IMG/VR virus record: IMGVR_UViG_3300022821_001860
Coordinates: 1-30,018 of that record
Length of the DNA stretch: 30,018 nucleotides
Direction: 5' to 3' (one strand)
Source: a virus
Shown here: positions 1,065 to 29,186 of the stretch, in pieces
Layout of the letters: each line of letters opens with the position of its first letter
Position numbering within the stretch: position 1 is the stretch's first letter
Position numbers and translations under genes: made by a program
The notes under the pieces: model-generated
The model's database searches: none
The model's input: only the letters and a program-made list of their open reading frames with translations
Told to the model about the DNA's origin: nothing

Positions 1065-1766
1065 ATGGCAAGACTGTTCGACGATGCTTCAAGCCAATAC
1101 CTACGCCGCGCGAGCACCGTACTGACGGACGCGCCTATCACGATGGCGTGCTGGTTTAAAGTCGACACGACGGCGATGACTCAGCACGTTATGGGATTTG
1201 GGGCATCGGATGCGTCGGGGCATTGGATACGCATGGTGATTAGCGACAGCGGCAATCTGTATGCACAGCATCGCCAAGGATCGGCGAGCAATACCGCGAT
1301 CTCGACATCCACCCTTTCGACCGGAACGTGGCACCTTGGCGTTGCGGTCTTTGAGTATGGCGGCGGCGAGATCACGTCGACCGTCTATCTGGATGGCGGC
1401 AGCAAAGCCACGCTGACGGATGCCGACGCATTCGCAACCGTTGACGAAACGACCATCGGCGTACGTGCCTATGGATCAGACGATCAGTTTCTATCCGGCG
1501 CTGTCGCATACGCCGCGATGTGGGACGTGGCGTTCAGTGACGCCAATGTCACCAGCCTTTGGAACAGCGGCAACGGCGTACTTCCGACAGCCGTACAGGG
1601 CGCGAACCTGCAAGCGTACTGGCCGCTGATTGACGACGACGACGACGACGAGAACAGCCACGACCTGACGGCTTACGGCTCGCCGACGTTTACGGACGGG
1701 CCGACGATTGGCGGCGGATCGTCTGGAAAACTCAACCGCAACCGAACACTTACCGGAGTTGGATAA
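1065..1766 (+). CDS. LamG/concanavalin A-like domain protein (candidate receptor-binding or tail appendage)
   Basis: The 233 residues look like one LamG-type jelly-roll domain. The N-terminus (ARLFDDASSQYL) is followed by a strand pattern with ITMACWFK, GTWHLGVAVFE, a STVYLDG turn and YAAMWDVAFSDANV, which is the usual order of these glycan-binding beta sandwiches. A run of six Asp residues near residue 190 comes from a (GAC)6 tract, and the C-terminus is Gly/Ser/Asn-rich. The next gene begins at the base after the stop codon. It lies upstream of the terminase with other candidate appendage genes, so a role in host recognition is inferred from fold and position. The exact virion location is unknown. 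Confidence 0.7.
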   Translation: MARLFDDASSQYLRRASTVLTDAPITMACWFKVDTTAMTQHVMGFGASDASGHWIRMVISDSGNLYAQHRQGSASNTAISTSTLSTGTWHLGVAVFEYGGGEITSTVYLDGGSKATLTDADAFATVDETTIGVRAYGSDDQFLSGAVAYAAMWDVAFSDANVTSLWNSGNGVLPTAVQGANLQAYWPLIDDDDDDENSHDLTAYGSPTFTDGPTIGGGSSGKLNRNRTLTGVG

Positions 1767-7945: not shown

Positions 7946-10151
7946 AGGAATCAATCTGCGGACCATGCTGGCCGGCGCGATCCAAGTCGACCGCGCGGCG
8001 GGCATCATTCGCAACGTCGCGATCATCACGGCGGGGACCACCAAGCCAAGCGGCGGCGGTTCTGCCCCGTTTGACGTGGACGCGACGACGTTGCAGCAGG
8101 TCGCAATGTCGATCAACGCGAACGCCATCGGCATCAAGTCTCGCATGACGCATCCCGAAATCGAAGGGCGCGACGACATCGGGTGCCGCCTTGGCTACAT
8201 CCGCAACGCTCGCGTCGAAGGCAATGCAGTCCGCGCGGACATGCACTTCCACAACCCCGCATCGAACGAAGCGATCACGCTGATGTCGATCGCGGAGGCA
8301 GACCCCGCGTCATGCGGCCTGTCCATCGTCGATTTTGACGCGCGAACCGAACAAGGAAATTCAGCGACCGGCATCGTGCTCCGCGTGGAGTCGATTGACG
8401 CGGTTGATTGGGTGGGTGAACCCGCCGCAAATCCGGCCGGCATGTTGTCGGCGGCAAGCCAACACTCGAAAGAGAGAGGAAACACAGTGCTCAATCCCCA
8501 ACAGATCGAATACCTGATCGGCATCGGCCTGCCCGCAGAGGCAAACGCCGAAGCCATCGCCGCGTTCTACGAAGGGCTTGACGAGTCGCAGAAAGCGGCC
8601 GTCGATGCGCTCGCCGCTGTCGGCGTGGAAACCGAAGTCGAACCCGTCGCCGCCGAGGCCGCGCCCGACGAAGAAAAGCCCAAGCCCGTCGCCGCGTCGG
8701 CCAAGCCCAAGGCGAAGCCCGCCGAAGGCGTCGCGTTGTCGCAGGCGGACATCGCCGCAGCCATCAAGGCGGACCGCGCCGAACAGCGTAAGCGAGAGAA
8801 GGCCATTCGCAGCATCGCGCTGAAAGCCAATCACGGCGAAAAGTGGATCAACGAACAGATCGACAGCGACGCCACGATTGGCGAGATCGCCCTGTCGGCA
8901 ATCAACAGCCTCAACCGGAGTCCAAAGGACATGGTTACCACCAGCGTCAGTGTCGGCGCGGACCGCAACCGCGATACGCTCAATCAGGCGGTGCAGGATG
9001 CCGTCCTGCTGCGTGCGGGCGGTCATCGCATCGTGCGACTCAACGAGGACGGCGGCGTGATGCTGTCGGCCAACGGCCAGCCTGAAATCCACAAGCACCA
9101 CGACCGCGCCGCAGAGTTTCGCGGCCGCAGTGTCATCGAGATGGGACGCCGCTACCTGATCGCTCTTGGCTGCGACAAGGCGGACAGCATGTCGCCCAAC
9201 GCGCTGGCGTCGATCCTGCTGAATCGGCAGAAGCTCCGCGACACACTGCCCGGCGTGTTCCTCGCGCAGTCGACCGGGGACTTCCCGTTTCTGCTTGCCG
9301 ACACGATGGGCAAGGTGCTTCGCAGCGAGTACGCCCTCGCGCCCCATACATGGAACGCGTGGTGCAACACCCGCACGACCCCTGACTTCAAGTCTATCAA
9401 GGTCATCCAGCTCTCCGAAGCTGCCAACCTTGCGGTCATCGACGCAGGCGACGAGTACAGCTTCGCGGCACTGACCGAAGGTCAAGAATCGTACGCTGTG
9501 CGGACGCAGGGCGGCGGACTCAAATTCACCCGCCAGATGCTTATCAACGACGACCTCAACGCGTTCGATCGCGTCGCGCGTCGCCTTGGCAACGCAGCCA
9601 TGCGTGCGGTTGAGTCGGAAGCCATCAGCATTCTGACCGCCAACGCCGTGCTTGCCGACAGTTCGGCATTGTTCAGCACCGCACACGGCAACCTGACCAC
9701 CGGTGCATTGACTGCCGCCGCTGCGGTCGCGTCGATCGACAAGGCGTTTGTCGCCATGCAGACGCAGACGGCACTCGGCAGCGACGACCCGCTGGACCTC
9801 CAGCCCGCCATCGCGCTGGTCCCGACCTCGCTGCATATGAAGGCAAAGGTCGCGTTTGCGTCCGGCGTCGACCCGTCGCTGGCGAACGCCACGCCCAACC
9901 CCATCGCGGGCGAAAACGTGCAGGTCATCCAGTCGGCCCGACTCAACTCGGACTCCGCCACGCAGTGGTACTTGCTCGCCAGCCCTTCGCAGGTTGACAC
10001 CGTGGAGATGGCGTTCCTTGAGAACGAGCAGACACCTGTCATCGAAGAGGAAACCGACTTCAACAGCGACAGCCTGCACATGAAGGTGCGGCACACGTTC
10101 CGTGCCAAGGCCATCGACTATCGCGGCATGGTTCGCGGCAGCGGCGCGTAA
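7935..10151 (+). CDS. prohead protease - scaffold - major capsid protein fusion
   Basis: This 738-residue polyprotein joins three functions usually made from separate genes. Residues 1-184 look like a prohead serine protease: KSRMTHP gives candidate catalytic His73, and CGLSIVDFD gives candidate Ser130. Residues about 185-345 look like a scaffold (delta) region, with a charged Ala/Pro/Lys linker at about 235-265 and a helical RAEQRKREK segment. Residues about 395-738 resemble Mu gpT-like major capsid proteins (STGDFPFLLADTMGKVL, DEYSFAALTEGQESY, LKFTRQMLINDDLNAF, AESEAISIL-like). GTG 7935 is chosen because GGAGGTG lies 4 bp upstream. A second ribosome site inside the gene could yield scaffold-capsid alone. 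Confidence 0.9.
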   Translation: MRHKGINLRTMLAGAIQVDRAAGIIRNVAIITAGTTKPSGGGSAPFDVDATTLQQVAMSINANAIGIKSRMTHPEIEGRDDIGCRLGYIRNARVEGNAVRADMHFHNPASNEAITLMSIAEADPASCGLSIVDFDARTEQGNSATGIVLRVESIDAVDWVGEPAANPAGMLSAASQHSKERGNTVLNPQQIEYLIGIGLPAEANAEAIAAFYEGLDESQKAAVDALAAVGVETEVEPVAAEAAPDEEKPKPVAASAKPKAKPAEGVALSQADIAAAIKADRAEQRKREKAIRSIALKANHGEKWINEQIDSDATIGEIALSAINSLNRSPKDMVTTSVSVGADRNRDTLNQAVQDAVLLRAGGHRIVRLNEDGGVMLSANGQPEIHKHHDRAAEFRGRSVIEMGRRYLIALGCDKADSMSPNALASILLNRQKLRDTLPGVFLAQSTGDFPFLLADTMGKVLRSEYALAPHTWNAWCNTRTTPDFKSIKVIQLSEAANLAVIDAGDEYSFAALTEGQESYAVRTQGGGLKFTRQMLINDDLNAFDRVARRLGNAAMRAVESEAISILTANAVLADSSALFSTAHGNLTTGALTAAAAVASIDKAFVAMQTQTALGSDDPLDLQPAIALVPTSLHMKAKVAFASGVDPSLANATPNPIAGENVQVIQSARLNSDSATQWYLLASPSQVDTVEMAFLENEQTPVIEEETDFNSDSLHMKVRHTFRAKAIDYRGMVRGSGA
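8471..8489 (+). promoter_or_regulatory. internal ribosome binding site and in-frame GTG start for a nested scaffold-capsid protein
   Basis: The purine run AGAGAGAGGA (8471-8480) is followed after 6 bp by GTG at 8487-8489, in frame as codon 185. This falls exactly between the protease and scaffold regions and would make a 554-residue protein ending at 10151. It recalls the nested lambda C/Nu3 arrangement. The site itself is visible; its use is inferred. Confidence 0.6.
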
Positions 10152-10208
10152 TTGACGGGCATCGAAACAACACCAAAACCACGGGCATGACCCGACGAGA
10201 GAAACGAC

Positions 10209-10571
10209 ATGAGCACGAACGTACGCAAGGGCGCTCCCGGGCGCAAAATCACACTGACCGCCCCGACTGGCGGGTGGTCGTCTGGCGACCTCATCACCAT
10301 TCTGGCGGGTAACTCCGGCTGGGTGGGCGAGGCCGTTACCGATGTCGCGGTCGGTGCGACCGGCGCTGTCGAAGTGGGCCATCAGGTCACCATCCCCAAG
10401 AACACCGGCACGGGCGAATCGTTCGCCGTGGGGGCGGTCGTCTACAAAGACGCATCCACAGGCATGGCCACCGCCGCACCGACCGGCAATGACTACATCG
10501 GACGCGCCGTCGCCAGTGCTAGCACTGCGGCCACGACCGTTGAGACGGTGTTTGCTCCGGCAGGAGCGTAA
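10209..10571 (+). CDS. DUF2190-like capsid decoration (cement) protein
   Basis: The 120-residue protein is small, Gly/Thr/Ala-rich and beta-stranded, with repeated turns such as TAPTGGWSSGDLI, VGAVVYKDASTG and a closing SASTAATTVETVFAPAG. This pattern matches DUF2190-family proteins, which are commonly encoded directly after the major capsid gene and bind the outside of the capsid. A 57-bp gap separates it from the capsid stop, and a GAGAG stretch precedes the ATG. The next gene begins 2 bp after its stop. Confidence 0.75.
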   Translation: MSTNVRKGAPGRKITLTAPTGGWSSGDLITILAGNSGWVGEAVTDVAVGATGAVEVGHQVTIPKNTGTGESFAVGAVVYKDASTGMATAAPTGNDYIGRAVASASTAATTVETVFAPAGA

Positions 10572-10573
10572 AG

Positions 10574-11146
10574 ATGCGCGTCGCGCTGCTCTCCGCAGGC
10601 CCATCGCTTGTCCAGACGTTCGACCCCGACGAACGCTTCGATCTACGCATCGGAGTTAATTCGGCAGTCAGCGTGTTCGTCTGTGACTGGTGGTCCTGCG
10701 GAGACGGCCAGACGTTTCATCGCGTCGAGGCGGTCGGCCTGCCTGTGCTGTTCGTCATGCAGCCGGACTGTAGCTGGTATCGGCAGACGAGCGCCATTCG
10801 CGATCGCTTCGCAAGGCATCGCGTCGTGGGGTGGGACAAGGTTCGCGACAGCGTGACCCCGCCGAATGAGTGGAGCAATTGGAGCGTGACTGCCGCGCTG
10901 GCATTGGCGGTCGAACAGGGCGCATCGCGAGTCGATGTCTACGGCCACGACTGCCGGGGCATCGTCGACGTTTCGGGACACACGCTCGCGAAGCGCGAAG
11001 ACACTTGGAAACGGGCGAGCAATTCCGTGCCGCATTGCTGGCGGATCACGAGAGATTGGGCCGCATCTCGCGGCGTTGAAATCATCGAGCATCAACCAGA
11101 GATTGACCCATGCGAATCACCGCCATCATCCCCGCCAAGGGCGTAA
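10574..11146 (+). CDS. DUF115 / GT42 sialyltransferase-like protein
   Basis: The 190-residue protein begins MRVALLSAGPSL; the GPSL signature near residues 9-12 recalls the CstII-like sialyltransferase and DUF115/MAF groups. A VNSAV segment and CDWW (about residues 28-42) follow, where these families recognise the position of a substrate. WSVTAALALAVEQGASRVDVYGHDC (split here as WSVTAALALAVEQ and GASRVDVYGHDC) matches their second conserved block, a helix followed by a G-D strand. AGGAG 9 bp upstream supports ATG 10574. The gene overlaps the nucleotidyltransferase gene by 37 bp, which supports a joint sugar-transfer pathway. The substrate is unknown and catalytic residues are not certain. Confidence 0.55.
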   Translation: MRVALLSAGPSLVQTFDPDERFDLRIGVNSAVSVFVCDWWSCGDGQTFHRVEAVGLPVLFVMQPDCSWYRQTSAIRDRFARHRVVGWDKVRDSVTPPNEWSNWSVTAALALAVEQGASRVDVYGHDCRGIVDVSGHTLAKREDTWKRASNSVPHCWRITRDWAASRGVEIIEHQPEIDPCESPPSSPPRA

Positions 11147-11796
11147 GCACGCGACTGCCGGGCAAGAACATGCAGGCGTTCGGCGACTCGACACTAATCG
11201 GGCACAAGGTCGCCCAGTTGCTTACGTGTTCGCTGATTGACGAAGTGGTGGTCGGTTCGGACTCGCGCGAGATTCTTGCAGAGGCCGCCGATCATGGCGC
11301 TGACGTTCGCGAGCGCGACGCCTACCACTGCGACGAAAGCCAATGCTCCGCCAACGACATGATCCGCAACCTGTCCGCGATGGTCGATTGCGATGTCGTC
11401 GTGTGGGCGCACTGCACAAATCCGCTGGTTGACGCCAGCATGTACAGCGATGCCATCGAAACGTATCTCGCGGGGAAGTGGGACTCGCTTTGCAGCGTGA
11501 CCCGCGTACAGCGTCATGCGTGGGGCGTGGTCGACGGCGAATACCAGCCCGTCAACTTTGATCCGTGGGGCGAGCGTCACCCGTTCGCGTCCGAACTTCC
11601 GGTCCGCCTGTATCAGAACGGCGCGATCTTCATTCAGCCGCACGCGCAGATGCTGGCGAATGCTTATTTCTACGGCGGCAACCCGCGACCGTTTGAGATC
11701 AACCAGCCTTACGACATCGACATCGACACGCAGCAAGACATTGAAATCGCGAGGGCGATCTACGCCATCAATCAACGAAAGGCGGTGACGGCGTGA
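11110..11796 (+). CDS. CMP-sugar synthetase-like nucleotidyltransferase (NeuA/KdsB type)
   Basis: The 228-residue protein starts MRITAIIPAKGVSTRLPGKN, a clear version of the IPARGGSKxxPxKN nucleotide-binding loop of CMP-sialic acid and related synthetases. VVVGSDSREI, VVVWAHCTNPLVDASM and PYDIDIDTQQDIEIAR match later conserved blocks, including the acidic metal-binding C-terminal strand. Its length equals a full catalytic domain. The expected reaction is activation of a nonulosonic or related acid sugar with CTP. It overlaps the DUF115-like gene upstream and the sulfotransferase-like gene downstream (GTGA at 11793). Finding it inside a head operon is unusual. The substrate cannot be told from sequence. 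Confidence 0.8.
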   Translation: MRITAIIPAKGVSTRLPGKNMQAFGDSTLIGHKVAQLLTCSLIDEVVVGSDSREILAEAADHGADVRERDAYHCDESQCSANDMIRNLSAMVDCDVVVWAHCTNPLVDASMYSDAIETYLAGKWDSLCSVTRVQRHAWGVVDGEYQPVNFDPWGERHPFASELPVRLYQNGAIFIQPHAQMLANAYFYGGNPRPFEINQPYDIDIDTQQDIEIARAIYAINQRKAVTA

Positions 11797-12464
11797 TTGT
11801 GGTCATGGGCCTATATCGCGGCGGTTCGTCGGCTGTTGCGGGCGTCCTGCATCACCTTGGCGTGTGCATGGGGCACGAACTCAAAGTCGTACCAGGGGCA
11901 GAGTCGCCCCGGTACGTCGCCTATGAGGACTGGCCGCTGCGCCGTACATGCCTTCAGTGCTACACCGAACGCGAGATGCACGCCCTTCGCGGGTTTGGCG
12001 GTCGCGTTCAACTGCTGTATCAGTACCTTGCCGACCGCATCAGCACATCACCGCAGGTGACGAACAGCCGCGACACGCTGGCGATCCCGTATACGGGATG
12101 CGATCACTCGCCGATGGGCGCGAAGTTTCCGTCGCTGTGCTACATGGGCCACGAAATCGTGGAGGCGTGGGGCGCAGATACGCAGTTCGTCGCGGTGGAT
12201 CGCGACTTGAAATCTGTTGTGGATTCCGCCCGCCGATGGTACGGCGACGGCTCGCACGGCATGACGCATCGCCTGTACGAAGCTCGCGAGAGTTTCCTTG
12301 CGACCCGCGAACACGTGCGCGTTCGGTACGAATCACTGGTCAAGAATCCCGCACTCGCCATCTCGCGGATCGCGGACGGGCTTGGCCTTGATCCGTCCGA
12401 CGCGAACCGCCAGGCAGCAATCAATCACGTTGCCCGTCCCACTTATGCGGAGGCGACATCGTGA
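11793..12464 (+). CDS. sulfotransferase-like protein
   Basis: The 223-residue protein has a P-loop-like start, VMGLYRGGSSAVAGVLHHLGV (in two parts VMGLYRGGSSAVAG and VLHHLGV), matching the 5'-phosphosulfate loop of PAPS-dependent sulfotransferases. FVAVDRDLKSVVDSARRW near residues 130-150 resembles the 3'-phosphate binding block, and VRYESLVKNPALAISRIADG is the usual C-terminal signature. Such enzymes move sulfate from PAPS to sugars or proteins. The GTG start overlaps the previous stop as GTGA, and its own stop overlaps the next GTG start the same way. It is thus inside a coupled chain between head and neck genes. The target is unknown. Confidence 0.75.
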   Translation: MIVVMGLYRGGSSAVAGVLHHLGVCMGHELKVVPGAESPRYVAYEDWPLRRTCLQCYTEREMHALRGFGGRVQLLYQYLADRISTSPQVTNSRDTLAIPYTGCDHSPMGAKFPSLCYMGHEIVEAWGADTQFVAVDRDLKSVVDSARRWYGDGSHGMTHRLYEARESFLATREHVRVRYESLVKNPALAISRIADGLGLDPSDANRQAAINHVARPTYAEATS

Positions 12465-12805
12465 CGCTTGATCTAGCGGCTGATAGCGGCATCTTCGTGG
12501 GCGACTTTGGCGAGTCGGTGGGCTTCCGCCTGTCGTCGCTGATCGACACGCGCACGGTTACCGCTGTCGTGAACCGCATGCCGATCAGCGACGACGGCGA
12601 CACGCCGTTCAGCGGGCGTCAGTCGCCTGTCCTGCACGTCCTGTTTCGCAATCACGCCACGCTTGGCGTGCTGCCGTCCGAAGTGGTGGCCGACGCATCG
12701 CAGATCGAAACATCGTTCCCGATGGGCGCGACCGCACGGTGGCGGAACGTCCTTCGCATCGTGCGACACAACGCCGGGACTGTACTGCTTGAGGTGCAGG
12801 CATGA
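12461..12805 (+). CDS. candidate head-tail connector protein
   Basis: This 114-residue protein is beta-rich. It has an N-terminal GDFGESVGFRL segment, a VVNRMPIS strand and a closing VLRIVRHNAGTVLLEVQA, the general pattern of small neck adaptors of the FII or stopper class. Position supports this: it is the first gene after the head-side cassette and is directly followed by an HK97 gp10-like neck gene through an ATGA overlap. It starts at GTG 12461, overlapping the previous TGA. The family assignment rests mostly on gene order. Confidence 0.55.
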   Translation: MTLDLAADSGIFVGDFGESVGFRLSSLIDTRTVTAVVNRMPISDDGDTPFSGRQSPVLHVLFRNHATLGVLPSEVVADASQIETSFPMGATARWRNVLRIVRHNAGTVLLEVQA

Positions 12806-13215
12806 CCTTCAAACGCAATGACAAATTCAATGCGGGGCTGCGCGTGGAAATCGGACGGCGTGCCGTCAGAGCCGCCGAGGCTGTACGCGACACCGCCCGC
12901 GCCCGCATGGATGCAGGTGGATCGGGCGAGTCATACAGCGGCGAGCCGCGGCGCAGTTCCGCAGACGGCGAGTCGCCCGTTAATCAGCGGGGCACGCTGT
13001 CGGATTCGCTGACCGCCTACGGCCCGCGCATCGACGACCGAAAGATCGAGGCTGCAATGGGCGCGAGCGCCGACAACAACAACTACACCATCATGTGGCT
13101 AGAGCATGGCACGGCACGCATGGCACCGCGCCCGCTGCTGTTCCCGTCGCTGATCGAGGCCCGCCCGCTGGTGCTCAAGGCGTTCGCCGCCAAGGGGGCT
13201 GGCGATGGCGCTTAA
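12802..13215 (+). CDS. HK97 gp10-like neck / tail-completion protein
   Basis: The 137-residue protein has an N-terminal helix rich in Arg/Ala (residues about 15-40), a short GESYSGEPRRSS loop and the signature YTIMWLEHGTARMAPRPLLFPSL near residues 90-115 (the key part is LEHGTARMAPRP). That signature is characteristic of HK97 gp10-type proteins, which lie at the head-tail interface. The gene starts in an ATGA overlap and its 3' end overlaps the next start by 11 bp. Confidence 0.85.
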   Translation: MTFKRNDKFNAGLRVEIGRRAVRAAEAVRDTARARMDAGGSGESYSGEPRRSSADGESPVNQRGTLSDSLTAYGPRIDDRKIEAAMGASADNNNYTIMWLEHGTARMAPRPLLFPSLIEARPLVLKAFAAKGAGDGA

Positions 13216-23756: not shown

Positions 23757-25592
23757 TCATTGGTGGTCCTTCACAACGACGCCGTGCTCAGAAAAAGTGA
23801 GCGACTTGGGGTGAAACTCATAAGCGATTTTGGCACCCGTGCCGCGACCGTTTCGAGCCTTGGGAATGTGCATAACGCGGTTCGCGCTGACGCTTTCGCG
23901 CAGGTTCAATGTTGTGTTCATCACCGTGAAGTGTTCGTGTTCTGCGAGAAATCGCAGCCATATCACGGTTGGCGCGAACCGCGTGATGGACGCGCCGCCC
24001 GACACGTCGTCAAGCGTCGCGCCTTCCGCATGTTTCTTGGGGTGCGTCACCAACAACACGCTGCACTGGTGGCGCTTCGCGATCTGCTTTACCTTCGCGA
24101 TGAACTTGCGGTCGTCGATAAACTGCTTGTCAGTGCCGCCCGCGATTGAGATAGGGTCGATGCACACGATCCGTTTCCCGTTCGCTGCCTGGGCTTCGCA
24201 CCACGCCGCGAGCATGTCGTGCGTAACGTCGGCTTCATCCGACGGCTCGTGCAGGCATTCACCGAACGAATCCGCCCATTTTCGCGTGTGGTCGCGGTAC
24301 GCCAACGCTTCGTCGGGGCATTCCTCAATCCAGTCGGGATCGGTCATGCGGGCATCGCCGACACGCTGCGCAGTTGCGCGCTGCAGGTGATACTCTCGCC
24401 CGTCCTCAAGCATCATGGCGGCGACGGCGATTCCGTTTTCGTGCCAGTGTGCAAGGTTCTCCAATAGCCAAAACGATTTGGTCGCGCCGGGATTTCCGCA
24501 GATAACCGTGAGCGTGCCGGGCATCATCGCCTTCGTGCCTGCCGACAGTTGCGGCCACTTGAACGGGATCGCCTGAAACCGCCCTTCAATGATGTCCACG
24601 AGTCTTTTTTCGAGCATGTCGCTTGCCGACCGCATCGGCTGCGGAACGTCGGCGGGGATCATCGCGGGCGGCGTCGCGATGACGGATGGCTGCGGCGTGT
24701 AAAACTCGGTGCATCCCGCGACAGCCTTCTCGGTTGTGATTCGCCCGTAGGTTGTGCCACCCCGCTTGGCGTCCCATTTGGACCGCATCAGGCCCGACAT
24801 CCGGAACATCCGATCAACCCCGCCCGCGTTGCCTTGGCACCAGAACGCGAGAATCGAACACAGTGCCATGTCGGCGGCAGAATCGTCGCCGCCGTAATCG
24901 CCCGTGTTGCCACTCCACAGGCGTTCAAATTTATCGCCCTGCTTTGACCGTCTGATGTGTTCGATGATGTCTAGCGGGGCAGGAGACGCGACAGTGGGTC
25001 GTGTAGCGGGCTTTGGTCGCGGGACCGGCGCTTTTGAGAGCAGTGACCAGTACACCTTTGCCAACGCCTTGCCGCAGTCGTTGAGCGTACGACACGATGT
25101 CGCGATGTCGCCAGTGATCGTGAAAAACCGATCGTGGTCGTACATCTCGATTTCGCCGAAGCCATGCACGTCCTTCGTGCGGCACTTCGCGCCGGGCTTC
25201 GCGCCGATACCGATGATCTTGACGCCGTTGCCCGACGGGCTGACCTCGGTGTATGTGGCAAGCGAGTCGATGATTGCCTGTGCCTCGGGCGCAATCGCAC
25301 CGTCGACAATGCAGTCGTCGAGATCGACGCCGACATACGCGTCGTCGGGGCTGAACACAAACCCGATCCCCGCATAGTCGCCAGCCTCGAACGCCGCCAG
25401 CGCATCGGCGTACGTTGCCCATGTTTCAGCCGATGTGCTGTCGGCGCGGCCCTGGCCGTCGACGCGCATCGGCACCTTGGTGGGCTTACCGCCGCGATCC
25501 TCGATTGACCAGCAAACCCACTGCGGCCGACCGCGCAGTGATGCGGGAATGTTGTCCACACGTTTCAGGAGCGTGTCGTCGCGAACGATCAT
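23757..25592 (-). CDS. primase-polymerase / helicase fusion (NrS-1-like)
   Basis: The 611-residue protein combines two replication enzymes. Residues about 1-185 are like archaeo-eukaryotic primases: GVDLDD gives the Asp90/Asp92 metal pair, SPSGNGVKI is at 118-126, and EIEMYDHDRFFTITG at 148-161. Residues about 215-295 (SGNTGDYGGDDSAADMAL, KWD, GRITTEKAV) match the helical bundle domain next to NrS-1-type polymerases. Residues about 345-600 form a RecA-like helicase core, with Walker A CGNPGATKS at 365-373 and Walker B RIVCIDPIS at 474-482. It would start and unwind DNA in the replisome. Its start overlaps the initiator gene stop by 4 bp. Confidence 0.88.
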   Translation of the reverse strand: MIVRDDTLLKRVDNIPASLRGRPQWVCWSIEDRGGKPTKVPMRVDGQGRADSTSAETWATYADALAAFEAGDYAGIGFVFSPDDAYVGVDLDDCIVDGAIAPEAQAIIDSLATYTEVSPSGNGVKIIGIGAKPGAKCRTKDVHGFGEIEMYDHDRFFTITGDIATSCRTLNDCGKALAKVYWSLLSKAPVPRPKPATRPTVASPAPLDIIEHIRRSKQGDKFERLWSGNTGDYGGDDSAADMALCSILAFWCQGNAGGVDRMFRMSGLMRSKWDAKRGGTTYGRITTEKAVAGCTEFYTPQPSVIATPPAMIPADVPQPMRSASDMLEKRLVDIIEGRFQAIPFKWPQLSAGTKAMMPGTLTVICGNPGATKSFWLLENLAHWHENGIAVAAMMLEDGREYHLQRATAQRVGDARMTDPDWIEECPDEALAYRDHTRKWADSFGECLHEPSDEADVTHDMLAAWCEAQAANGKRIVCIDPISIAGGTDKQFIDDRKFIAKVKQIAKRHQCSVLLVTHPKKHAEGATLDDVSGGASITRFAPTVIWLRFLAEHEHFTVMNTTLNLRESVSANRVMHIPKARNGRGTGAKIAYEFHPKSLTFSEHGVVVKDHQ

Positions 25593-27265: not shown

Positions 27266-28105
27266 TTACTTGCTGTTGTTGGTCTGGAACAGGTAACGCC
27301 AGATGGCCGGGTCGCCCTCGTCGTAGGGCATTGACTCGACACGTTCATCAGGCGCGTGGTTGTCGCGAGACTTCGCGACGTGCGTTGGCAGTTCTTTCAG
27401 GTAGATGGCGCGCGATCCGTGGCCCGTCGCCTTGCCCTCTTTGGTACTCACGTCATACAGCACGGCCAACAGGTGGTCGGCCCACTCTTTGACCTTTTCG
27501 CGAACGCTGTGTTTATTCGCCTGGTACAGACGCGGCTCATAGCGAAGGAAGTCTTCGCCGTGCGGGTTGGGCACGCTCGCTTTAGTTTCGTGCGCGATCA
27601 GTACGACATCGCGGCCAGCACGAACATGCGTGTCCAGATCGGTGAGCAGCGACAGAATCGTTTCGTACAGGCGGCGGTAACCTTTGCCGAATCCGCCGTC
27701 GACATCTTCGATCTTGTCTTTGCCCGCTTCCTCGCATACGTGGACAGCCGCCATGTCTTCGACCTTCGACAGCGAGTCGATAACCACCACGTCGTGATCG
27801 GCCCACAGCGAATCGCTGCACAACGCGGCGCGAACATCGGCGAACGTCTGCAAGTGTTTCGACTCAACGCGATCCACCGCAAGGCGATTTGTGCCGCTCT
27901 CAACGTCAAGGAAAAGGGGGCGCTTGCCGATCTCGGTCAAGAGCGAGACAAGAGTCGTTTTGCCAATGCCGCCGCTGCCGTACAGGACGACGCGTTGCGG
28001 CGACGTCACGATGCCGCTGCCGACCTCGAACGCGCGGATGGATGGCCTGGCACCCGGTGGTGGCGGTGGTGCCCTAAAGGGTTTCGGTGCTGCTGTTGCC
28101 GTCAT
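27266..28105 (-). CDS. Sak4-like AAA ATPase (phage recombinase)
   Basis: Starting at MTATAAPKPF, the 279-residue protein has a short Pro-rich beginning, Walker A GSGGIGKTT at 43-51, FLDVES at 65-70 and Walker B VVVID at 106-110. It has the RecA-like single-domain plan of Sak4 / AAA_24 proteins, which promote annealing or strand exchange. GGAG lies 7 bp upstream of ATG 28105, and the start lies inside the exonuclease 3' end. With the SSB-like and nuclease genes it forms a recombination module. Confidence 0.8.
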   Translation of the reverse strand: MTATAAPKPFRAPPPPPGARPSIRAFEVGSGIVTSPQRVVLYGSGGIGKTTLVSLLTEIGKRPLFLDVESGTNRLAVDRVESKHLQTFADVRAALCSDSLWADHDVVVIDSLSKVEDMAAVHVCEEAGKDKIEDVDGGFGKGYRRLYETILSLLTDLDTHVRAGRDVVLIAHETKASVPNPHGEDFLRYEPRLYQANKHSVREKVKEWADHLLAVLYDVSTKEGKATGHGSRAIYLKELPTHVAKSRDNHAPDERVESMPYDEGDPAIWRYLFQTNNSK

Positions 28106-29186
28106 CGTCAATCTCCAATTCGGGGTGTACGTTGGTGTCAATCGCATAGCCTGCCGGTACACCCGTGGCCGGGTCAGGCGTCGCGCTCTCTGAACAAATC
28201 GTGAAGTATTCGCAGCGGTAAGGCGACAGGCACGCCGATGTGTTGCGGAAGTGCCGGCCGTGCCGCTGCGCGTCGCGGATCATCTGGCCGATCTGCCATA
28301 ACTCCGATTCAAACTCGGCAAGGTCCGCGTCGAGTCGCGGAATCTCCTGCCGTTGAAAGTAGTATTCGGGGCGGTCGCCGATGTCGGCGGTGAGGCGGTC
28401 GCCGTACTCTCGCGGTGACTCGTTTCGCGTCACGAGCCTGTGGCCATCAGCGGCAGACGCGCTTTGCTTCCACTTGCCGTTTGCGTTCTTGACGCGTTCG
28501 TTGTCCGCGTCGAGAACGATCTTGACGCCATCAGCATCAGGTGCAGGGATGGTGTGAGGGCGCGTTGCGGGCTTGCGTGTCACGTCGTAAATGACTGTCT
28601 GAACATCGTGGCCCAGCCGACGCGCGGCGAGCATGTACATGCTGATTTGCTGGTCGATGCGAAGCCGCATCCAGTAGTCAGAACCGGGCGTAATGTCGAC
28701 GCCACACGTCTTGTATTCTTGAACCGCGAGCCGACCGTCAGGCAGCTTGACAATGCGGTCGATCTTGCCCGCGACTTTGAACGTGCGAGACGATGCGCCG
28801 GTGTCAGGATTCGCAAGCGGCAGGATGAACGCCTGCTCAGTCGCGACAACCTCGAAGCGATCTTCGGACCATCGCCACACATGAGCCGCGAGCAGGCGAA
28901 TCACCTTTTCGCATTCGGTCGCCCATTCGTGCGAGTCTGCCCACGATGGCGTGATGGCGTACTCGGCGCGAATCATGTCGCACACGTCGTCGAGATCGTC
29001 GCCCAGGTCGACACGCTCAAGTCCGTAGTGAAACCACTGACCCATGCGAAGCGGCTGCGACTTGGTATCGCGTTGCAGGCCGACCTCGTATCGGAAATAA
29101 TGCTTCCGCATACACTGCTTTGCACACGTCATTCGTGAGTGCGTGAGTAGCGACGTTTTGTGTTGCGCGATTGGTAGTGCGATCAT
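28074..29186 (-). CDS. PD-(D/E)XK exonuclease with Fe-S cluster (Cas4/AddB-type)
   Basis: The 370-residue protein contains VAGKIDRIV (Asp143) and LAVQEYKTC (Glu157, Lys159), the PD-(D/E)XK catalytic set, followed by a DQQISMY motif (QxxxY-like). Cys21 and Cys25 (TCAKQC) near the N-terminus, and Cys319, Cys325 and Cys331 (ACLSPYRCEYFTIC) near the C-terminus, resemble the split four-cysteine [4Fe-4S] site of Cas4, AddB and phage nucleases. It would resect DNA ends for the Sak4-like recombinase. AGGG lies 8 bp upstream of ATG 29186. The end overlaps the recombinase start by 32 bp. Confidence 0.85.
   Translation of the reverse strand: MIALPIAQHKTSLLTHSRMTCAKQCMRKHYFRYEVGLQRDTKSQPLRMGQWFHYGLERVDLGDDLDDVCDMIRAEYAITPSWADSHEWATECEKVIRLLAAHVWRWSEDRFEVVATEQAFILPLANPDTGASSRTFKVAGKIDRIVKLPDGRLAVQEYKTCGVDITPGSDYWMRLRIDQQISMYMLAARRLGHDVQTVIYDVTRKPATRPHTIPAPDADGVKIVLDADNERVKNANGKWKQSASAADGHRLVTRNESPREYGDRLTADIGDRPEYYFQRQEIPRLDADLAEFESELWQIGQMIRDAQRHGRHFRNTSACLSPYRCEYFTICSESATPDPATGVPAGYAIDTNVHPELEIDDDGNSSTETL

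What the first reader, a model, noticed from the sequence alone, without database searches (positions are those of the whole stretch)
10574..12464. Sugar-activation, transfer and sulfation cassette inside the head operon
A DUF115/GT42-like gene, a CMP-sugar synthetase-like gene and a sulfotransferase-like gene are overlapped (37 bp, GTGA) and lie between the capsid decoration and the neck genes. It suggests that the phage decorates its own virion or the host surface with a charged, perhaps sulfated, nonulosonic-type sugar. I know of no standard system of this shape.
Basis: partly seen in the sequence, partly recalled or inferred. Interest (0 to 1): 0.8.

Follow-up and report, generated by a model that had tools for sequence, protein, structure and literature searches.

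The report
Phage head-operon sugar-and-sulfate cassette
Between its head genes an uncultured phage carries three overlapping genes that very probably activate an acidic sugar, attach it to something and add a sulfate; related phages carry the first two genes at the same spot with a methyl-adding gene instead, or with no third gene, so phages may dress their own particles in a charged, capped sugar.

Summary
10574-11146, 11110-11796 and 11793-12464 are three overlapping genes between a Phage_cement_2 decoration gene and a neck gene. Families: a small DUF115/GT42-type protein whose AlphaFold model (pLDDT 78, pTM 0.79) best matches the CMP-sialic-acid transferase CstII; a NeuA/PseF-like CMP-sugar synthetase (CMPs; PF02348, 1.3e-19) with the metal-site Asp kept but the sialic-acid-pocket Gln replaced by an invariant His; a Sulfotransfer_3 protein above its curated cut-off. 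Relatives make a series at one site: decoration|neck (nothing), |GT-CMPs|, |GT-CMPs-sulfotransferase| (this window), |GT-CMPs-methyltransferase|. In a second head-operon type the pair recurs as CMPs-GT and as TylF methyltransferase-CMPs-GT. Eleven of 15 other contigs with this CMPs have a GT42/DUF115-like gene beside it; a twelfth has a GT-D transferase. The core is the pair; the third gene is a swappable cap. The complete trio was found only in this virus. I read it as cytoplasmic glycosylation of a virion protein, like Maf on flagellin, plus capping. Target, sugar and sulfation are inferred, and GT42's catalytic His is not conserved. New variant of phage virion glycosylation.

The parts
10209..10571 (+). 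head decoration (Phage_cement_2) gene, left boundary of the insertion site
   Evidence: PF09956 1e-11, phrog_122 3.7e-10; orthologues at the same place in L005, L009, L018/L020
10574..11146 (+). GT: small GT42/DUF115-type protein, presumed CMP-sugar-dependent transferase
   Evidence: phrog_4603 1.2e-4; AlphaFold pLDDT 78, pTM 0.79; Foldseek top matches CstII with CMP, 9.2e-5; orthologues in L009, L018, L020, L016, L019
11110..11796 (+). CMPs: CMP-sugar synthetase of the NeuA/PseF class, sugar unknown
   Evidence: PF02348 1.3e-19; full-length alignment to 1qwj and 1eyr, 6e-14 and 8e-14; Asp204 invariant, Asp206 D or N, His101 at the Gln104 position
11793..12464 (+). ST: Sulfotransfer_3 family protein, presumed PAPS-dependent cap enzyme
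   Evidence: PF13469 6.7e-8, 33.5 bits against cut-off 27, profile 2-213 of 216
12461..12805 (+). head-tail attachment-like neck gene, right boundary of the insertion site
   Evidence: orthologues in L005 (48%), L009 and L020; the L009 one has a weak Phage_attach match, 0.007, below cut-off
12802..13215 (+). Neck1-like connector gene
   Evidence: phrog_5 4.2e-7

Best explanation
A late-expressed virion glycosylation cassette. CMPs activates an acidic 2-keto-3-deoxy sugar taken from the host (nonulosonic- or Kdo-type; no gene to make it was recognised in the window) to its CMP form; the small soluble GT42/DUF115-type protein transfers it in the cytoplasm to a virion protein made from the same operon, much as Maf transferases modify flagellin; the sulfotransferase then adds sulfate from PAPS, a role taken by a methyltransferase in relatives. 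Shown by sequence: gene families, operon coupling, recurrence of the pair at the head/neck junction, swapping of the third gene. Inferred: enzyme activities, sugar, virion target, order of steps.
For: Families; the GT model matches CstII in complex with CMP as the top class of solved structures; translational coupling with decoration and neck genes; same-site series empty / pair / pair+sulfotransferase / pair+Methyltransf_24; a second head-operon type with MCP-CMPs-GT and MCP-TylF-CMPs-GT followed by Neck1 genes; GT42/DUF115-like neighbour in 11 of 15 other phage CMPs contigs and GT-D in a twelfth. Precedents: the Maf central domain (pfam01973) resembles CstII and Maf O-glycosylates flagellin from CMP-sugars, accepting Neu5Ac and Kdo (PMC11339370); capsid glycans in mycobacteriophages (PMC11256854 citing Freeman 2023).
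Against: GT42's catalytic His188 has no conserved counterpart in the short-form family; GT has no Pfam hit and TM to CstII is only about 0.57; the trio with sulfotransferase is seen in one virus only; no target site or sugar-biosynthesis gene identified; the sulfotransferase model failed (pLDDT 42); late location alone does not prove a virion target.
Confidence: 0.5

Rival explanations
1. The cassette modifies a host surface glycan (LPS, capsule or flagellin) during infection or lysogeny, for instance to block re-adsorption or superinfection.
For: CstII natively acts on lipooligosaccharide (own knowledge); the nearest cellular relatives of CMPs lie in surface-polysaccharide-like clusters, one with an HMGL-like aldolase, a HAD phosphatase and a sulfotransferase.
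Against: Coupled into the late head operon in five lineages of two operon types, late for surface exclusion; no strongly hydrophobic segment in the three proteins except a moderately hydrophobic N-terminal strand of ST.
Confidence: 0.22
2. The first gene is not a sugar transferase but an MptE-like pyrophosphokinase relative or an inactive fold member, so the operon activates a sugar that a host transferase uses, or does something else with CTP.
For: Foldseek also finds archaeal HPPK and thiamine pyrophosphokinases, less well; L015's copy nearly reaches the MptE-like cut-off; no conserved catalytic His.
Against: CstII is the best structural match; it sits beside a CMP-sugar synthetase in many lineages and in both gene orders; in L045 the partner is a GT-D glycosyltransferase.
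Confidence: 0.12
3. The enzymes hypermodify phage DNA bases with a sugar that is then sulfated or methylated.
For: Glycosyltransferase and sulfotransferase genes have been proposed in phage DNA modification (Iyer 2013, as cited in PMC10829341).
Against: No base-modification gene was recognised among the window genes scanned; the module sits in head operons, not with replication genes.
Confidence: 0.06
4. The sulfotransferase is an unrelated accessory gene that acts on another substrate and only happens to follow the pair.
For: The third gene differs or is absent in relatives; ST was found in no other phage.
Against: GTGA coupling on both sides; methyltransferases of two glycan-associated classes occupy the equivalent slot in L009 and L019, as expected of a cap enzyme.
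Confidence: 0.1

Closest known systems
Maf flagellin glycosyltransferases with CMP-nonulosonate synthetases (Campylobacter, Clostridium, Aeromonas)
   Same: CMP-sugar synthetase plus a pfam01973/CstII-like transferase; cytoplasmic protein O-glycosylation from CMP-activated sugars (PMC11339370)
   Different: The phage GT is a minimal 160-190 aa single domain without the Maf flanking domains; target is presumably a virion protein; sulfate or methyl cap gene attached; no sugar synthesis genes recognised
GT42 sialyltransferases (CstII of Campylobacter jejuni)
   Same: Best structural match to the GT model, GPSL-type N-terminal motif, paired with a CMP-sugar synthetase
   Different: Shorter; catalytic His188 not conserved; acceptor unknown; CMPs lacks the NeuA Gln104
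Mycobacteriophage capsid glycosylation (Che8, F1 cluster; Freeman et al. 2023)
   Same: Phage-encoded glycosyltransferases thought to modify virion proteins
   Different: GT genes near the far end of the genome in Maravista (PMC11256854), not in the head operon; I know of no CMP-sugar synthetase or sulfotransferase in that system
Orphan phage Sulfotransfer_3 genes (OM43 phages, Synechococcus phage S-SRM01)
   Same: PF13469 sulfotransferase in a phage, function stated as unclear (PMC10580990)
   Different: No CMP-sugar synthetase or GT42-like partner is mentioned there; here the gene is coupled to both

Membership tests
CMP-sugar synthetases (PF02348 CTP_transf_3) | profile match above curated cut-off | tested here: met
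   71.3 bits against 22.6
CMP-sugar synthetases (PF02348 CTP_transf_3) | metal-site Asp pair and N-terminal P-x-K loop of NeuA | tested here: met
   Asp204 and Lys19 invariant in 8 phage proteins, Asp206 D or N
CMP-Neu5Ac synthetase (NeuA) | sugar-pocket Gln104 (Neisseria numbering) | tested here: not met
   His101 at that position, invariant in the phage set
PseF, pseudaminic acid cytidylyltransferase (TIGR03584) | equivalog cut-off | tested here: not met
   73.8 bits against 205.7
GT42 sialyltransferase | GT42/CstII fold | tested here: met
   Foldseek 9.2e-5, probability 1.00, TMq 0.57, 11% identity
GT42 sialyltransferase | catalytic His188 | tested here: not met
   no His conserved in that region of the six short-form proteins, by sequence alignment only
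GT42 sialyltransferase | sugar transfer from a CMP-sugar | not testable with these tools
   needs an enzyme assay
MptE-like/DUF115 (PF01973) | profile match above cut-off | tested here: not met
   window protein no hit; relative L015 33.9 against 34.6 bits
Sulfotransfer_3 (PF13469) | profile match above curated cut-off over the full domain | tested here: met
   33.5 against 27 bits, profile 2-213/216
PAPS-dependent sulfotransferase | sulfate transfer from PAPS | not testable with these tools
   PAPS-loop-like GLYRGGSS and RDLKSVVDS stretches seen by eye only; single-sequence model unusable
phage virion glycosylation system | glycan on a virion protein | not testable with these tools
   needs virions and mass spectrometry

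The most novel reading that the evidence does not exclude
A recurrent, modular phage system at the head-neck gene junction puts a CMP-activated nonulosonic- or Kdo-like sugar on the virion and caps it with an exchangeable group (sulfate, methyl or none): phage-encoded, sulfated acidic glycans on capsids, built by a minimal Maf/CstII-like transferase.
Probability: 0.4. Interest if true: 0.8.

Novelty: new variant of a known kind. Interest (0 to 1): 0.62.

Why it matters
Virion glycosylation in phages is known from few cases, and none that I found uses CMP-sugars or sulfation. A two-gene core with a swappable cap, beside the decoration gene, is a compact and testable system: it predicts which phages carry charged surface glycans, which could alter adsorption, stability, immune recognition or host defences that sense capsids. 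It also suggests a function for some of the many MptE-like/DUF115 proteins and orphan sulfotransferases in environmental phages.

Tried and rejected
Single-protein scans of IMG/VR found only the same virus. INPHARED gave no match for GT or sulfotransferase and one CMPs match, a Moritella capsule contig filed in the phage collection; plasmids gave nothing for GT. The GT profile against PDB sequences was not significant. The sulfotransferase fold from a single sequence was unusable, so no fold search was run on it. A genome scan with the capsid found only a distant prophage-like locus (L012), so the host stays unknown. Literature searches for phage CMP-sialic-acid or nonulosonate systems found nothing relevant in the held library. 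'Pseudaminic acid' as the sugar was rejected as unsupported. Cellular relatives were sampled in one phylum only, so a closer source elsewhere is not excluded. No metagenome scan was available.

Full report
Observation. The window is a 30,018-base IMG/VR virus record. At 10574-12464 three genes overlap: 190, 228 and 223 codons, with 37 bp shared by the first two, GTGA between the second and third, and GTGA again between the third and the neck gene at 12461; the first begins 2 bp after the decoration gene's stop. The neighbours are the fused protease-capsid gene, Phage_cement_2 decoration, a head-tail attachment-like gene, Neck1 and tail completion gp17. The cassette is therefore translationally embedded in the late head operon.

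Families. The middle gene is a CMP-sugar synthetase: PF02348 1.3e-19 and near full-length phmmer alignments to mouse and Neisseria CMP-Neu5Ac synthetases. The loop Ser13/Arg15/Pro17/Lys19 and the metal-site Asp204 are invariant in eight phage proteins and Asp206 is D or N. His101 stands where Neisseria NeuA has Gln104, and is invariant (the roles of these Neisseria residues are from established knowledge). It scores far below the PseF equivalog cut-off. So it very probably activates a sugar, but which one is open. The third gene passes the Sulfotransfer_3 cut-off over the whole domain. The first gene has only a weak match to phrog_4603 'alpha-2,3-sialyltransferase'. An AlphaFold model from an eight-sequence alignment reached pLDDT 78 and pTM 0.79; Foldseek's best solved structures are the GT42 sialyltransferase CstII (9e-5), with archaeal HPPK (MptE class), thiamine pyrophosphokinase and human ST6GALNAC2 further down. 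In the viral library it matches many unnamed and 'MptE-like' phage proteins. The CstII catalytic His has no conserved counterpart in the short forms, whose invariant residues include GPSL, N29, CDWW and D44. So the fold is well supported and the catalysis is not.

Relatives at the same site. L005 (capsid 54% identical) has decoration followed directly by the neck gene; no GT match exists in its 17-kb contig. L018/L020 have decoration-GT-CMPs; in L020, whose contig continues, CMPs overlaps the neck gene with no third gene. L009 (capsid 51%) has decoration-GT (47%)-CMPs (56%)-Methyltransf_24 (1.8e-17)-neck. The window has decoration-GT-CMPs-sulfotransferase-neck. This is an occupied/empty-site series with an exchangeable third gene.

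Relatives elsewhere. In a second head-operon type (decoration-like phrog_1731, capsid phrog_371, Neck1 phrog_27) the pair lies in the other order: CMPs-GT in L016 and TylF methyltransferase-CMPs-GT in L019. L015 has an MptE-like gene plus CMPs; L017/L039 and L041/L043/L044 have the pair inside large clusters of glycosyltransferase-like genes; L045 pairs CMPs with a GT-D transferase (1.3e-22); L038/L040/L042 lack a recognised GT beside CMPs, with an unassigned 433-codon gene just upstream in L038 and L040. In L041/L043 the neighbour is linked to the GT family by profile comparison (79.6%, E 1.5e-5). Altogether 11 of 15 contigs other than this virus have a GT42/DUF115-like gene beside CMPs; the 15 make about nine lineages, ten with the window. 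All searches started from this window's proteins, so the frequency of head-operon placement is not an unbiased estimate, and the profile E-values of the seven contigs used to build the profile are by construction; the window GT alone finds L009, L018, L020, L016 and L019 (1e-46 to 6e-11).

Cellular relatives. In 398 genomes drawn from the phylum of the distant L012 prophage host, the best matches (E about 1e-36; 24-33% identity to the window protein) lie well outside the phage set (profile E about 1e-80 to 1e-115, partly by construction). Five examined lie in surface-polysaccharide-like regions, next to 2-hydroxyacid dehydrogenases (two) or, in one, an HMGL-like aldolase, a HAD phosphatase and, some genes away, a Sulfotransfer_1 gene; those five keep a TH-x-T-[SN]-P motif with His. 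This hints at an unusual ulosonic acid rather than Neu5Ac; it is a lead only.

Mechanism. The best reading is cytoplasmic, Maf-like transfer of a CMP-activated acidic sugar to a virion protein, then capping by sulfate or methyl. Maf shows that a protein with a CstII-like pfam01973 domain can O-glycosylate protein from CMP-nonulosonates and even CMP-Kdo (PMC11339370), and phage capsid glycosylation has precedent (PMC11256854 citing Freeman 2023). Shown: families, coupling, recurrence, cap exchange. Inferred: activities, sugar, target, sulfation of this glycan. The main rival is host-surface modification; the late-operon position argues against it without excluding it.

Verdict. The sulfated form was found in a single virus: L002, L003/L004/L007 and L008 are pieces of the same virus, identical or nearly so.

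Noticed in passing
window 23757-25592, minus strand: Protein with an NrS-1 polymerase HBD domain (PF22763, 2.9e-28) and an AAA_25 ATPase domain: a primase-polymerase-like replication gene.
   Followed up: no
window 8361-10604, minus strand; L009 6736-9423, minus strand: Very long antisense ORFs (747 and 895 aa) opposite the protease-capsid gene in two related phages; probably an effect of high-GC codon usage.
   Followed up: no
window 8247-8332, minus strand: ARAGORN reports a tRNA-Gln inside the protease-capsid gene on the opposite strand; likely a false positive.
   Followed up: no
window 1065-1766: Laminin_G_3/concanavalin-like lectin gene (PF13385, 3.4e-15) upstream of the terminase, a possible sugar-binding virion protein.
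   Followed up: no
window 27266-29186, minus strand: AAA_24 ATPase gene and PD-(D/E)XK exonuclease gene overlapping, a recombination-like pair on the minus strand.
   Followed up: no
L006 (FPLJ01000048.1): A Moritella viscosa capsule/sialic acid locus is filed in the phage collection; it shows no phage gene.
   Followed up: yes
L049 (G386:C5:25500-38000): Bacterial cluster with HMGL-like aldolase, CMP-sugar synthetase, HAD phosphatase and sulfotransferase: possibly an uncharacterised ulosonic acid pathway.
   Followed up: partly
L038 2361-3662 and L040 4852-6153: A conserved 433-codon gene without any Pfam match (L038 tested) directly upstream of the CMP-sugar synthetase, overlapping it by one base; perhaps an undescribed glycosyltransferase.
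   Followed up: no
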